A stretch of 9,032 nt of DNA from JBDRGX01 sp043817485 [NCBI: bacterium] (GTDB taxonomy: Bacteria > JBDRGX01), in contig JBDRGX010000007.1 of NCBI GenBank assembly GCA_043817485.1, positions 1-9,032 on the forward strand, given 5' to 3'. The notes beneath the pieces were generated by a model. That model searched no databases and was not told the origin of the DNA. It worked only from the letters and a program-made list of their open reading frames with translations. The position numbers and the translations under genes are program-made. This document shows positions 3,827 to 7,602 of the stretch, in pieces (position 1 is the first letter of the stretch; every line of letters begins with the position of its first letter).

Positions 3827-4459
3827 ATGTCTATTCAATCTGAACCATTAGGAAAAATAGAAAAACCACAAGTAGCAGATTATGAAAAAGGAAAAAAACT
3901 ATTATATTTTATTCCTCTTATTTTTATTCCTCAAAATGCTTCTTCTGATTTTTTAGAATTATTAAATAAATATTGGAATGAAATAAATACACAAATAACA
4001 AATTTAGAAACAAAATTAGGTAAAGTTAATAAAATATATCATGAATTAATTCCAGAAGAAGAAAATGAAAAAAAAATAAATGCTATTAAAGAAATAAATC
4101 CTCAAGGATTTGAAATGATTAAAAGTAGATTAGATCAAGGTGTCCAATTACAAACTATAGAAAACAAAGATTTATTAACAGAATTTATGGATTGGGGTAA
4201 GTGTTTAACAACACGGCTTCAAAATCAAAAAGTATTAAATCAAATATATGCATTTTATATAGAAGTTCAGAAAAAAAGAAATGATTACATTCTTCAAAAA
4301 ATAACAGAAACTTTAAAAGAAACAGAAAAAGGCATTTTAATAATGGGTGAAGGATATCAAATTCAATTTCCAGAAGAAATAGAAATATTTTATATTGCTC
4401 CACCATCACTTGATGAATTTAAGCATTTAATTAGAAAACATCAAGAAGCAAAAAAATAA
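3827..4459 (+). CDS. Unrecognised 210-aa protein, helical, in cimA operon
   Basis: I do not recognise a named family. The protein has no signal peptide and only one short hydrophobic stretch (25-35, LLYFIPLIFIP), so it is probably cytoplasmic. Residues 41-75 and 135-170 are strongly helical and charged, with coiled-coil-like spacing (YWNEINTQITNLETKLGKV). Specific-looking patches are MDWGKCLTTRL (121-131), KKRNDYI (149-155), and a C-terminal GILIMGEGYQIQFPEEIEIF (169-188) followed by YIAPPSLDEFKHLIR (189-203). These read like conserved family signatures and not low-complexity sequence, and I have an unverified impression of similar uncharacterised proteins in other anaerobes. The Shine-Dalgarno AGGAGGT (3812-3818) is the strongest in the run and overlaps the cimA TAG stop, with the ATG 8 nt on. 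Translational coupling to cimA is therefore likely. No function is assigned. Confidence 0.85.
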   Translation: MSIQSEPLGKIEKPQVADYEKGKKLLYFIPLIFIPQNASSDFLELLNKYWNEINTQITNLETKLGKVNKIYHELIPEEENEKKINAIKEINPQGFEMIKSRLDQGVQLQTIENKDLLTEFMDWGKCLTTRLQNQKVLNQIYAFYIEVQKKRNDYILQKITETLKETEKGILIMGEGYQIQFPEEIEIFYIAPPSLDEFKHLIRKHQEAKK

Positions 4460-4485: not shown

Positions 4486-4947
4486 ATGGTACTATCAAAT
4501 TTTTTCAAAGAAAACCTTATTATCCTTGATTTAAAAGCAAAAGATAAAAATAATGCTATAAATGAAATAATAGAACTTATTTCAAAAAATAAGCAAATTA
4601 ATAAAGAAGAAGTAAAAGTATCTATATTGGAACGAGAAAAAATGCAAAGTACTGGAATAGGAAATGGTATTGCTCTTCCTCATGCAAGAATTACATCAAT
4701 AAAAAATATTATTATTGCTTTTGCTAAATCTAATGAAGGAATTGATTTTAATTCAATAGATAATAAATTTGTAAATATATTTTTTATGATTATTGGAAAT
4801 CCAGAAAAACATAATGAATATCTTGAAATTATATCAAAATTAGCTCGAATTCTTTCTAAAAAAGAAAATCGTCAATCTATTTTAGATACTGCTTCTCCTA
4901 AAAAAATAATAGATTTAATTGATAAAATAGATAAAAAGGAAATTTAA
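4486..4947 (+). CDS. PTS EIIA type-2 domain protein (PtsN/fructose EIIA-like)
   Basis: This 153-aa protein is a stand-alone EIIA domain of the fructose/mannitol-Ntr superfamily. The phosphorylatable histidine is H66 in GNGIALPHAR (59-68), the hallmark motif. It is preceded by EREKMQSTGIG (49-59) and followed by a fold-typical strand-turn region (KNIIIAFAKSNEGIDFNSIDN, split at about 73-93) and a KHNEYLEIISKLARIL helix (108-123). Phosphate would come from HPr or NPr through EI; neither is encoded here, nor are EIIB or EIIC. The domain is therefore more likely regulatory, as PtsN is for potassium transport in enterobacteria, than part of a sugar permease. AGGAGA (4474-4479) precedes ATG by six bases. 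It is 26 nt after the unknown gene and 2 nt before the CBS gene, so it is probably cotranscribed with a permease. Family call secure, target inferred. Confidence 0.92.
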   Translation: MVLSNFFKENLIILDLKAKDKNNAINEIIELISKNKQINKEEVKVSILEREKMQSTGIGNGIALPHARITSIKNIIIAFAKSNEGIDFNSIDNKFVNIFFMIIGNPEKHNEYLEIISKLARILSKKENRQSILDTASPKKIIDLIDKIDKKEI

Positions 4948-4949
4948 AA

Positions 4950-5429
4950 ATGATAATTAAAAATTTTATAACTTATAATCCAATTGTTATTTCTCCTTCA
5001 ACTACTTTTCTTGAAATAGTAAACAAATTTTTTGAATATCATTTTGATATTTTACCAGTAGTTAATACAAAACATCATCTTATTGGAGTAATTTCAAAAG
5101 CTGATTTAATAAAAATTTTTATTCCAAAATATTTTGATCTTTTAGATGATCTTTCTTTTGTTAAAGATTTTGGAGCTTTAGAAATAGATGAAAAACATAT
5201 TGAATTAATAAAAAACCTTTTTATAGCACATGATTTAATGACTATAAATGTAATTACTGTAGAAGAAGAAACAACTTTATTAAAAGCAATTACTTTAATG
5301 GTAAAAAATCATATAAGATGTCTTCCTGTTTTAAAAGAAAAAAAACTTATAGGAGTTATTTCCAAAAAAGATATTTTGAAAATATTTTTTAACAAAGAAA
5401 ATATTCAAAAAAGAGAAAATATTTTATGA
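4950..5429 (+). CDS. Stand-alone CBS domain pair protein
   Basis: This 159-aa cytoplasmic protein consists of two CBS motifs forming one Bateman module: about 2-58 (ending LIGVISKADLIKIF) and about 93-148 (ending LIGVISKKDILKIF). The Ser-x-x-Asp pattern used to hold an adenosine ribose in many CBS proteins is present in both halves (S49/D52 and S138/D141), so binding of AMP, ADP, ATP or a related nucleotide is plausible. The 59-92 linker is longer than in a minimal pair and rich in Asp, Leu and Phe. The start is 2 nt after the EIIA stop, with AAGGAAA just inside the end of that gene. The stop shares the ATGA (5426-5429) with the next start. The tight packing suggests it senses energy state for the permease or for EIIA. 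Family certain; ligand and partner inferred. Confidence 0.92.
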   Translation: MIIKNFITYNPIVISPSTTFLEIVNKFFEYHFDILPVVNTKHHLIGVISKADLIKIFIPKYFDLLDDLSFVKDFGALEIDEKHIELIKNLFIAHDLMTINVITVEEETTLLKAITLMVKNHIRCLPVLKEKKLIGVISKKDILKIFFNKENIQKRENIL

Positions 5430-6715
5430 CAATTAATTATATAGTATCTATATCAATATTTCTTCTTTTATTTATTTTTATTTGTACGGAAAAAATACAT
5501 AAAACTATTGTTAGTATGATTTGTGCAGCTTTAATGGTTATTTTTGGAATATTTCGTGGTTTTTATTCACCAGATAAAGTTATGCAAGCAATTGATTTCA
5601 ATACACTTGGTTTATTAATAGGAATGATGATTATTGTAAATCATCTTAAACAAACAGGTATTTTTAATTATCTATCTATTAAATTATCTAAATTATCTAA
5701 AGGAAATTCTTTATATCTTTTTATTTTTTTAACAACTATCACTGCTATAATTTCAATGTGGATAGATAATGTTACTACTTTAATTTTAATTGGACCTATA
5801 ACCATTTTAATTACAAATACTTTAGGAATTTCTTCATTACCTTTTTTAATAGGAGAAGCATTTTTATCTAATATTGGCGGAGCAGGAACTATGATTGGAG
5901 ATCCTCCAAATATTATTATTGGATCAGAAAGTGGTTTAAGTTTTAATAGTTTTATTGTTCATCTTATGCCTCCAACAATTATTATGATGATCGTAACTAT
6001 AATTGTTTTTTGTATTATTTTTCGCAAAGAATTTGAAAAAAATAAAAAAAATATTGAACATATAATGTCTATGGATGAATATGAAGCAATTAAAAAATCT
6101 AAAGGATTAAAAAGATGTGCAATAGTTTTATTGATTACTATTGCACTTTTTTTCTTACATCAAAAATTAGAAATACCACTTTCTTTTATTGCTTTTTTTG
6201 GAGCAAGTCTTTTACTTCTTTTAATGAGACCAAACTTAGAAGAAATTTTACAAAAAGTAGAATGGCCATCTCTTTTCTTTTTTATGTCTTTATTTATTAT
6301 TGTTGGAGGGATTGAAAACACTGGTCTTTTAAAAATAATTGGAGCAAAAATATTACCTTTGGCTCAAACAAATATAGTTTTATGTGCAATATATTTATTT
6401 TGGATTTCAATTATTTTATCTGCTATTACTAATAACATTTCATTTACTATAGCTATAGTTCCAATTATTAAGCATATTAGTATTACAATTCCAAATGCTA
6501 ATATTTTATGGTGGGCATTAGCTTTAGGTGCTGCTTTTGGAGCAAATGGAACACCTATAGGATCTACAGCTAATATAATTGCTATTTCAATAAGTGAAAA
6601 AACAAAATATCCAATTACTTTCAAAAATTGGATTAAATATGCTACATTTCCATTATTTATTGGATGTATAGTAATTTCTTTAATCTTACTTTGTTTCCCA
6701 AATTTATTTAATTAA
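5426..6715 (+). CDS. ArsB/NhaD/SLC13-type ion permease
   Basis: This 429-aa integral membrane protein has about 11-12 hydrophobic segments, starting at 4-20 and ending at 405-425, with a charged cytoplasmic loop at about 200-230. It belongs to the ion transporter superfamily containing ArsB, NhaD and SLC13 permeases. The first repeat has SMWIDNVTTLIL (110-121) and SNIGGAGTMIGDPPNIIIGS (148-167). The second has SAITNNISFTIAIVPI (332-347) and GANGTPIGSTANIIA (372-386). These paired hairpin-loop signatures define the inverted-repeat fold. Substrate (Na+/H+, arsenite, a dicarboxylate or another anion) cannot be fixed; GGxGTxIGDPPN favours the NhaD/ArsB side. In the second repeat the position usually Asp in DNIP is Asn (N336), and Pro is Ser (S339). 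No arsR or arsA is nearby. The start overlaps the CBS stop by 4 nt without a clear Shine-Dalgarno, implying coupled translation. It is the last gene before a palindromic terminator-like element. Confidence 0.9.
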   Translation: MTINYIVSISIFLLLFIFICTEKIHKTIVSMICAALMVIFGIFRGFYSPDKVMQAIDFNTLGLLIGMMIIVNHLKQTGIFNYLSIKLSKLSKGNSLYLFIFLTTITAIISMWIDNVTTLILIGPITILITNTLGISSLPFLIGEAFLSNIGGAGTMIGDPPNIIIGSESGLSFNSFIVHLMPPTIIMMIVTIIVFCIIFRKEFEKNKKNIEHIMSMDEYEAIKKSKGLKRCAIVLLITIALFFLHQKLEIPLSFIAFFGASLLLLLMRPNLEEILQKVEWPSLFFFMSLFIIVGGIENTGLLKIIGAKILPLAQTNIVLCAIYLFWISIILSAITNNISFTIAIVPIIKHISITIPNANILWWALALGAAFGANGTPIGSTANIIAISISEKTKYPITFKNWIKYATFPLFIGCIVISLILLCFPNLFN

Positions 6716-6727
6716 ATTATACAGAAC

Positions 6728-6757
6728 TTGAACCGACGATTTAAATCGTCGGTTCAA
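6728..6757. terminator. 30-bp perfect palindrome, probable bidirectional terminator
   Basis: TTGAACCGACGAT, a TTAA centre, and the exact reverse complement make a 30-bp palindrome that would fold on either RNA strand as a 13-bp stem with a 4-nt loop. It lies in the 80-bp gap between two convergent genes, the permease stop (6715) and the TPR stop (6796). Its stem is about half G+C against very A+T-rich surroundings. No U-tract follows on either strand, so it is not a canonical intrinsic terminator. It may block RNA decay, or belong to a repeat family. AAATCG recurs next to it (6756-6761). Confidence 0.6.
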
Positions 6758-6795: not shown

Positions 6796-7503
6796 TTACT
6801 TATTTTTCAACCATTCAATTTTATCTTGTATTTCTTTTTTAAAAGAACTTTCAGGATAAAAATCTATCAATTTTTGATAAGTATTTATTGCTTCTTTTTC
6901 TTTATTAGATTTAGCATAAATATCAGCCATAGATATAATTGCATATTCTGCTAAAATAGTATTTTTATATTCTTTTTCTACTTGTTTATAATAAAAAATG
7001 CTTTTTTCATTATTGTTTAAAGATTTACAACAACTTGCTAAATTTAATTTAATATAAGCAATTTCTATAGTTCCTCTAAATTTAAATAAACATTTTTGAT
7101 ATATTTCTGTAGCTTTTTTAAAATTCTTAAGTTCATAATAACAATGACCAGTATATAAAAAAGCTTCTTTTGCATCTTGAGTAAAAGAATATTTAGATAT
7201 AATTTTTTGATAAGATTTCAATGCTTTATTATATTTTTCTTCATTAGTGTTAAAAATAATTCCTTCGTTATTTTCTTTTAATGTTTGATGAAAATATTGA
7301 TGGGCTTTTTGCAATAATTTTACTGATTGATTCGTAGTTTTATTTATAGATAAATTTACAACAAAAATAATTATTAAAAAAGCAATAATTATTCCACCAG
7401 CAATTAATATTTGTTGTTTATATTTTTCAATTTTAGATAAAAAACGAAATATTATTTCTGTAAATGCATCATGTCTCATTTCTTTTCTTGTAATCTTACT
7501 CAT
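6796..7503 (-). CDS. Membrane-anchored TPR protein (YfgM/TolA-binding-like)
   Basis: This 235-aa protein has a basic cytoplasmic N-terminus beginning MSKITRKEMRHDAF, one transmembrane helix at about 31-51 (QILIAGGIIIAFLIIIFVVN), and an extracytoplasmic TPR array. Recognisable repeats run at about 86-110 (NKALKSYQKIISKY), 112-145 (AFLYTGHCYYELKNFKKATE), 148-181 and 185-219 (AIISMADIYAKSNKEKEAIN). The topology and N-terminal signature resemble YfgM-like or TPR_21 proteins that scaffold partners at the cell envelope, but the partner is unknown. The start at 7503 is chosen because AAAGGA (minus strand, 7511-7516) lies 7 nt upstream. A longer reading to 7557 enters the tRNA and is rejected. It lies 24 nt downstream of tRNA-Arg, without a terminator between, and is probably cotranscribed with it. 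It converges on the permease gene. Domain architecture is clear; exact family is tentative. Confidence 0.85.
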   Translation of the reverse strand: MSKITRKEMRHDAFTEIIFRFLSKIEKYKQQILIAGGIIIAFLIIIFVVNLSINKTTNQSVKLLQKAHQYFHQTLKENNEGIIFNTNEEKYNKALKSYQKIISKYSFTQDAKEAFLYTGHCYYELKNFKKATEIYQKCLFKFRGTIEIAYIKLNLASCCKSLNNNEKSIFYYKQVEKEYKNTILAEYAIISMADIYAKSNKEKEAINTYQKLIDFYPESSFKKEIQDKIEWLKNK

Positions 7504-7527
7504 ATTTATTTTCCTTTTATTGTTAAG

Positions 7528-7602
7528 TGCGCCTGAGAGGACTCGAACCTCCGACACACGGTTTAGGAAACCGTTGCTCTATCCATACTGAGCTACAGGC
7601 GC
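7528..7602 (-). tRNA. tRNA-Arg (anticodon CCU)
   Basis: The minus strand gives a full cloverleaf: acceptor GCGCCTG/CAGGCGC, D-arm GCTC/GAGC around AGTATGGATA, anticodon stem ACGGT/ACCGT with loop TTCCTAA (anticodon CCT, read CCU), variable GTGTC, and T-arm GGAGG-TTCGAGT-CCTCT. All stems are paired apart from one G-U in the T stem. The discriminator base is A (7528). The length is 75 nt, and CCA is not encoded (the next bases are CTT), so it must be added by nucleotidyltransferase. It reads AGG codons. Confidence 0.96.

What the first reader, a model, noticed from the sequence alone, without database searches (positions are those of the whole stretch)
4486..6715. EIIA + CBS pair + ArsB/NhaD-type permease as a tightly packed three-gene module
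A stand-alone PTS EIIA domain (H66), a CBS pair with both Ser-x-x-Asp sites, and an ion permease follow each other with a 2-nt gap and a 4-nt ATGA overlap. No EIIB, EIIC, HPr or EI is present, so EIIA is unlikely to serve sugar uptake. A permease gated both by phosphorylation state (EIIA) and by adenine nucleotides (CBS) would be an unusual control scheme. The gene identities are firm; the joint mechanism is inference. I have an impression that similar clusters occur in some uncultured phyla, so the arrangement may be recurrent though undescribed functionally.
Basis: partly seen in the sequence, partly recalled or inferred. Interest (0 to 1): 0.6.

Follow-up and report, generated by a model that had tools for sequence, protein, structure and literature searches.

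The report
Phosphate-switched regulator beside an ion permease
Three neighbouring genes encode a membrane permease and two control proteins, one a phosphate-accepting switch and one a nucleotide-type sensor; the same trio, often with the two control proteins fused into one, recurs next to the same permease family in several bacterial phyla, so it is probably a real and apparently undescribed way to control a transporter.

Summary
EIIA (H66), a CBS pair and a CitMHS/ArsB-fold permease are co-directional, with a 2-nt gap and a 4-nt ATGA overlap. The linkage is recurrent. In searches of four phyla (Omnitrophota, Verrucomicrobiota, Planctomycetota, Spirochaetota) single proteins made of EIIA plus CBS pair occur, and the same permease family lies downstream within 600 nt in 70 of 76 returned loci. 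A cultured Fusobacterium has it too. The EIIA histidine is kept in 74 of 74 distinct fusions and in the window. Of 25 related genomes, 21 have HPr, 21 have EI, 0 have PTS_EIIC. I infer that PEP-EI-HPr sets the phosphorylation of EIIA, and EIIA with CBS gates the permease; no interaction was tested. The nucleotide arm is weaker: S/T-x-x-D is complete in only 19 and 20 of 74 fusion sites. The window's CBS and permease group with CBS-permease pairs, not with the fusions. One Omnitrophota genome has EIIA and CBS as separate genes before a Na+/H+ exchanger, suggesting an exchangeable cassette. Substrate, direction and sign of control are unknown.

The parts
4486..4947 (+). stand-alone PTS EIIA domain protein (PF00359), active-site His66
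4681..4683 (+). codon of the predicted phospho-acceptor His66 in ALPHAR
   Evidence: residue number; bases cat
4950..5429 (+). CBS pair (Bateman module), both S-x-x-D motifs present, with a segment between the two CBS motifs that resembles that of other permease-linked CBS proteins
5426..6715 (+). CitMHS-family permease (429 aa) with the ion transporter superfamily elevator fold; closest solved structure ArsB
5426..5429 (+). ATGA overlap of CBS stop and permease start (likely translational coupling, inferred)
6728..6757 (.). perfect 30-nt palindrome between the convergent permease and TPR genes; perhaps the end of the transcription unit (inferred; the terminator scan did not flag it)

Best explanation
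The EIIA and CBS proteins form a dedicated cytosolic control unit of the permease. EI and HPr, encoded elsewhere, move phosphate from PEP to His66 of EIIA, so that EIIA reports the PEP/pyruvate or energy state. EIIA acts through the CBS protein, which docks on the elevator-type permease; one phosphorylation state (by analogy with E. coli PtsN and YcgO, the unphosphorylated one) holds the permease inactive. The CBS pair may add a second input from an adenine nucleotide or c-di-AMP. Shown here: gene identity, tight packing, recurrence, natural fusion, kept histidine, presence of EI and HPr in most and absence of PTS_EIIC in all of 25 related genomes. Inferred: binding, gating, sign, ligand and substrate.
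For: EIIA-CBS fusions upstream of a permease of the same family in 70 of 76 loci: 13 of 14, 29 of 30, 18 of 19 and 10 of 13 in four phylum searches. Fusion confirmed by Pfam in four examples. Fifth case in Fusobacterium vincentii, with two CitMHS permeases in tandem 217 nt downstream. Histidine kept 75 of 75. HPr 21 of 25, EI 21 of 25, PTS_EIIC 0 of 25; among the 20 of these that carry EIIA with CBS, HPr 18 and EI 18. The CBS-permease pair without EIIA is common: CBS upstream in 24 of 80 permease loci, two of these with EIIA as well. EIIA next to other ion transporters: EIIA before a Na+/H+ exchanger (L087, L204, L207, L259) and EIIA-CBS before one (L203). Precedent: unphosphorylated PtsN binds the cytoplasmic region of the K+/H+ antiporter YcgO and inhibits it (PMC11808508, passages).
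Against: No interaction or transport evidence. The window's nearest permeases mostly lack EIIA. Six of 76 EIIA-CBS loci have no permease downstream. Two EIIA-CBS carriers lack HPr and two lack EI in the assemblies held. 0 of 249 Bacillota genomes had the fusion (no positive control in that search). The nucleotide motif is often incomplete. The fold of a fusion could not be modelled (pLDDT 50.5).
Confidence: 0.62

Rival explanations
1. Plain co-expression: EIIA is one of several regulatory EIIA proteins acting elsewhere (on enzymes or transcription), and the operon only ties its dose to the permease.
For: Stand-alone EIIA genes in Omnitrophota also sit before genes that are not transporters: in examples scanned, a CofD-family protein, a hexapeptide transferase, a nucleotidyl transferase and EI.
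Against: Fusion to the CBS pair and 70 of 76 adjacency to one permease family; EIIA also recurs before Na+/H+ exchangers.
Confidence: 0.17
2. The CBS pair alone is the regulator of the permease; in the window the EIIA is a recent neighbour without a role in transport.
For: The nearest permeases carry CBS alone or neither; the window CBS groups with stand-alone CBS proteins; EIIA upstream in 2 of 80 loci found by permease, against CBS in 24 of 80.
Against: 2-nt gap and intact His66 in the window; the same trio exists as a fusion elsewhere.
Confidence: 0.13
3. A real phosphotransfer path: EIIA passes phosphate to the CBS protein, the permease or the substrate, as a PTS without EIIB or EIIC.
For: The histidine is kept throughout and PTS_EIIC is absent from 25 related genomes.
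Against: No EIIB-like acceptor among the window proteins scanned; the permease fold is that of secondary transporters. EIIC families other than PF02378, and EIIB, were not searched in the genomes.
Confidence: 0.05

Closest known systems
PtsN (EIIANtr) control of the K+/H+ antiporter YcgO in E. coli (PMC11808508, passages read)
   Same: An EIIA protein controls an ion antiporter by a phosphorylation-dependent contact with its cytoplasmic regulatory region; regulatory rather than sugar PTS.
   Different: YcgO is a CPA1 antiporter with RCK and CorC domains in its own chain and its regulator is the general PtsN; here the EIIA is encoded with, or fused to, a CBS pair and the permease has the CitMHS/ArsB fold.
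CBS-regulated transporters such as MgtE, OpuA and MpfA (review PMC10710835, passages read)
   Same: A CBS pair as an add-on control domain of a transporter.
   Different: There the CBS pair is part of a transporter subunit; here it is a separate protein, often carrying an EIIA domain.
LacS with an EIIA-like domain, and EIIAGlc control of LacY and MalK (PMC10710835, passages read)
   Same: PTS components controlling non-PTS transporters.
   Different: EIIA of the glucose type and sugar substrates; no CBS pair named in the passages.
ArsB arsenite pump (10tp; PMC13381914, passages read)
   Same: Closest solved fold, Z 45.0, rmsd 2.8 over 415 residues; the two substrate-site Asn (111, 337) align with N115 and N337.
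   Different: The three aspartates examined there for H+ coupling (D112, D148, D370) align with V116, G152 and A370 (read against the window protein).
MamN (NF040989)
   Same: Best NCBIfam hit of the permease, 223 bits.
   Different: Below the curated cut-off of 500 bits; no magnetosome-family match among the other window proteins scanned.

Membership tests
Regulatory (PTSNtr-like) EIIA | EIIA_2 domain with active-site histidine | tested here: met
   E 1.3e-34; H66
Regulatory (PTSNtr-like) EIIA | PtsN equivalog model TIGR01419 over its cut-off | tested here: not met
   89.7 bits against 138.7; TIGR00848 IIA subfamily is met (111.2 against 103.5)
Regulatory (PTSNtr-like) EIIA | EI and HPr in the same genome, no sugar EIIC | not testable with these tools
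   no genome held for the window; in 25 related genomes 21, 21 and 0
Bateman (CBS pair) regulator | two CBS domains in tandem | tested here: met
Bateman (CBS pair) regulator | binding of an adenine nucleotide or c-di-AMP | not testable with these tools
   motifs present in the window, incomplete in most relatives
ArsB arsenite efflux pump | curated ArsB models over cut-off (NCBIfam) | tested here: not met
   NF011980 123.2 of 457, TIGR00935 103 of 415, NF033877 97.6 of 760 bits; Pfam ArsB PF02040 is over its cut-off, 63.1 of 22.2, as a broad family
ArsB arsenite efflux pump | aspartates proposed for H+ coupling (D112, D148; D370 also examined) | tested here: not met
   aligned to V116, G152, A370 (residues from PMC13381914)
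MamN | NF040989 over cut-off | tested here: not met
   223 of 500 bits
NhaD | TIGR00775 over cut-off | tested here: not met
   33.4 of 577.1 bits
CitMHS / ion transporter superfamily fold | PF03600 over cut-off and IT elevator fold | tested here: met
   (274 of 31.9 bits)
EIIA-CBS plus permease module (defined here) | EIIA with CBS pair, as fusion or neighbours, directly upstream of a CitMHS permease | tested here: met
EIIA-CBS plus permease module (defined here) | descent of the window's parts from the fusion lineage | tested here: inconclusive
   against: window CBS lies in a 23-row set of stand-alone CBS (support 99), and the permease in a 12-row set of mostly CBS-only or bare permeases (support 97), one of which follows a fusion; EIIA tree unresolved

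The most novel reading that the evidence does not exclude
EIIA plus CBS pair is an exchangeable regulatory cassette, joined more than once in evolution (as fusion and as separate genes) to different ion or solute transporters: CitMHS permeases in at least five phyla and a Na+/H+ exchanger in one Omnitrophota genome. Together with the EIIA-exchanger pairs, this would make control of ion transport a main output of the PTS that lacks sugar permeases in the PVC group, spirochaetes and relatives.
Probability: 0.4. Interest if true: 0.75.

Novelty: new variant of a known kind. Interest (0 to 1): 0.6.

Why it matters
Bacteria of the Planctomycetales, Spirochaetales and Chlamydiales are reported to have PTSNtr genes and almost no sugar PTS (PMC13104625, passages), and what that pathway controls there is, as far as I know, largely open. 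A transporter that recurs beside its own EIIA-CBS regulator gives a concrete output to test. It would show phosphate flow and a nucleotide-type sensor meeting on one secondary transporter, and would improve annotation of these genes, which score as fructose PTS IIA. A cultured Fusobacterium carries the fused form, so the test need not wait for uncultured species.

Tried and rejected
Sugar uptake by this EIIA was rejected for the relatives, though only PF02378 was searched among EIIC families. Arsenite pump, NhaD and MamN membership were rejected on scores and residues. The idea that losing D336 marks the window's permease was dropped: 139 of 151 rows have D, but ArsB itself has Asn at the aligned place. 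The EIIA tree is unresolved (nearest partner L087, support 58) and carries two long-branch warnings, so no descent is claimed from it. Citramalate synthase did not place the window: 57 to 61% identity to genomes of unlike labels among the ten best of 80 searched. Fold of the L048 fusion failed (pLDDT 50.5, two rows) and was not used. The Bacillota search for the fusion (0 of 249) has no positive control. Sigma-70-like sites were no more frequent than in shuffles (29 against a mean of 37.4), and the only terminator-like site lies inside the permease gene. A PII-like label for a small protein in L259 was dropped: no Pfam match.

Literature: ten searches of open-access PMC papers. Eight bore on EIIA, CBS and permeases, one on Treponema PTS, one on ArsB structure. 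Three found no paper; the others gave listings, mostly capped (20 of 50, 15 of 34, 15 of 1,084, 12 of 24, 10 of 11), in which I saw no title or abstract start that describes such a module. Subscription papers are missing. A 2026 review of PTSNtr has no 'CBS', 'fused' or 'fusion' in its text.

Rows dropped before counts: the permease tree left out hits under 300 bits, stretches under 330 aa and identical stretches; the EIIA and CBS trees left out hits with E above 1e-12 and domains of 115 aa or less; one search used only the loci returned (best 30 in the Verrucomicrobiota search; L189-L202 in Omnitrophota, 13 fusions and the split G049, leaving out two more fusions without a locus, G090:C138 and G080:C127, whose coordinates also put a permease next to them). 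One row labelled 'none' (L161, second permease) in truth follows a fusion just outside the locus, so the 'none' labels include edge effects.

Full report
What is there. Three + strand genes lie at 4486-4947, 4950-5429 and 5426-6715, with a 2-nt gap and an ATGA overlap. They encode an EIIA_2 domain protein, a CBS pair and a permease. The permease is best described as CitMHS (274 bits); Pfam ArsB scores 63 bits. Its AlphaFold2 model is good (pLDDT 93.3), and the closest solved fold is ArsB (Z 45.0), followed by SLC13-type anion transporters. The three aspartates examined for H+ coupling in ArsB (PMC13381914, passages) are not at the aligned places in the window (V116, G152, A370), so I do not call it an arsenite pump. 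No genome is held for the window, and citramalate synthase did not place it. GC per 1000-base window is 19 to 29%.

Recurrence. A CBS gene lies directly upstream of the permease in 24 of 80, in several phyla, and EIIA as well in 2 of 80, both spirochaetes; none of the 46 loci labelled Bacillota has either. Whole-genome searches then gave more. Permease matches at E up to 1e-40 were found in 56 of 193 genomes of the phylum of L028 (record titled Omnitrophota) and 33 of 149 of that of L007 (titled Planctomycetota). Of the loci returned, many of the stronger ones have an upstream ORF of about 300 to 350 aa (399 at most, stop to stop) that holds EIIA followed by a CBS pair; Pfam confirms the fusion in three examples and in Fusobacterium.

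Adjacency. A model of 15 fusions (A2) was searched in four phyla. At the returned loci the permease lies downstream on the same strand within 600 nt in 13 of 14 (Omnitrophota, one of them the split G049), 29 of 30 (Verrucomicrobiota, best 30 only), 18 of 19 (Spirochaetota) and 10 of 13 (Planctomycetota): 70 of 76. Measured distances run from 3 to 454 nt. The six exceptions show no such permease; one of them is a partial match. At E up to 1e-40 the model matches 18 of 198 Spirochaetota and 11 of 149 Planctomycetota genomes. At 1e-30 it matches 142 of 240 Verrucomicrobiota and 179 of 193 Omnitrophota genomes, but part of the first and most of the second are EIIA alone; full-length fusions are listed in 13 Omnitrophota genomes. 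In Bacillota it matches 0 of 249, without a positive control. A Fusobacterium vincentii record carries the fusion, followed after 217 nt by two CitMHS permeases in tandem. Phylum names are inferred from the record titles of the centre genomes.

Phosphate path. The histidine is kept in 74 of 74 distinct fusions and in the window. In 25 genomes chosen around the stronger permease matches, HPr is found in 21, EI in 21 and PTS_EIIC in 0; the controls ring in 7 of 14 for each. Twenty of the 25 carry EIIA with CBS (one of these cut by a contig end); HPr is in 18 and EI in 18 of those. Completeness of the assemblies is not told. Other EIIC families were not searched. So phosphate can probably reach EIIA in most of these genomes, and sugar transport through a PF02378 permease is not seen.

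Nucleotide path. The Ser/Thr-x-x-Asp motif is complete at the first site in 19 of 74 fusions and 11 of 24 stand-alone CBS rows, and at the second in 20 of 74 and 9 of 24; the 24 include the window itself. The phosphate arm is therefore better kept than the nucleotide arm. A segment between the two CBS motifs looks similar in window, stand-alone and fused proteins among the rows printed and might be the contact with the permease; that is inference.

How the window's set arose. In the permease tree the window lies in a 12-row set (support 97) of permeases with CBS alone (6) or with nothing recognised upstream (5); one of the latter in truth follows a fusion. The window's CBS lies in a 23-row set of stand-alone CBS proteins (support 99), apart from the CBS of the fusions; the EIIA tree is unresolved. 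The simplest reading is that EIIA joined a CBS-permease pair here separately from the fusion lineage. These are FastTree trees, and the window's letter make-up is skewed in the permease and EIIA trees.

A cassette. In one Omnitrophota genome (L203) EIIA, CBS and a Na+/H+ exchanger stand as three separate genes in the window's order. EIIA without CBS precedes a Na+/H+ exchanger (PF00999) in L087, L259, L204 and L207. Of the 15 stand-alone EIIA loci, none shows a downstream gene that I recognise as EIIB or EIIC; only five of these downstream proteins were scanned with Pfam for this check, besides L204 and L207 counted among them as exchangers: L204, L207, L205, L206, L210 and L212 were scanned in all, so the rest rests on reading the sequences.

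Mechanism. Best reading: PEP, EI and HPr set the phosphorylation of EIIA; EIIA acts on the CBS protein, and the CBS protein on the permease. The nearest precedent is E. coli PtsN, whose unphosphorylated form binds and inhibits the K+/H+ antiporter YcgO through its cytoplasmic region (PMC11808508, passages). A review of transporter control describes CBS domains as 'plug and play' modules and EIIA control of LacY and MalK (PMC10710835, passages). Sign, ligand, substrate and any contact remain untested.

Literature. Ten searches gave no paper or listing entry that I could see describing this module; they cover open-access PMC papers only and several listings were capped. A 2026 review reports PTSNtr genes in Chlamydiales, Spirochaetales and Planctomycetales and near absence of sugar PTS there, and does not use the words CBS, fused or fusion (PMC13104625, passages).

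Noticed in passing
window 6728-6757: Perfect 30-nt palindrome just after the permease stop, between convergent genes; not flagged by the terminator scan.
   Followed up: no
window 3827-4459: 210-aa protein between citramalate synthase and EIIA, + strand, without any Pfam or NCBIfam match at 0.001 and only weak PHROG hits; may share the transcription unit.
   Followed up: partly
window 5426-6715, residues 336-339: NNIS where most relatives have DNIP (D336 in 139 of 151 rows); ArsB also has Asn at 336.
   Followed up: partly
window 7527-7602: tRNA-Arg (cct) on the - strand overlaps the listed GTG start of the TPR protein gene (6796-7557), so that protein probably starts further in.
   Followed up: no
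L008, L028, L099, L101, L102 (also L252, L255, L256): In Omnitrophota-like loci the permease, with CBS in four of the five, follows a gene that resembles waaA and precedes genes that resemble lpxK or lpxL of lipid A synthesis (names recalled from sequence).
   Followed up: no
L205, L206, L208-L218: Stand-alone EIIA genes in Omnitrophota precede genes of other kinds: EI (L205), a hexapeptide transferase (L206), a nucleotidyl transferase (L210), a CofD-family protein (L212) by Pfam; the others resemble these by eye. Suggests wider regulatory use of EIIA.
   Followed up: partly
L207 1516-3044: Two EIIA domains in a row before the Na+/H+ exchanger, the first with an N-terminal part that resembles a DNA-binding domain (recalled).
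   Followed up: no
L246, L247: Orphan EIIA-CBS fusions without a permease, downstream of genes resembling an ABC-2 transporter (names recalled).
   Followed up: no
L259 2775-8500: CBS, EIIA-CBS fusion and permease in a row, followed by EIIA, a Na+/H+ exchanger, a small protein without Pfam match and another EIIA.
   Followed up: partly
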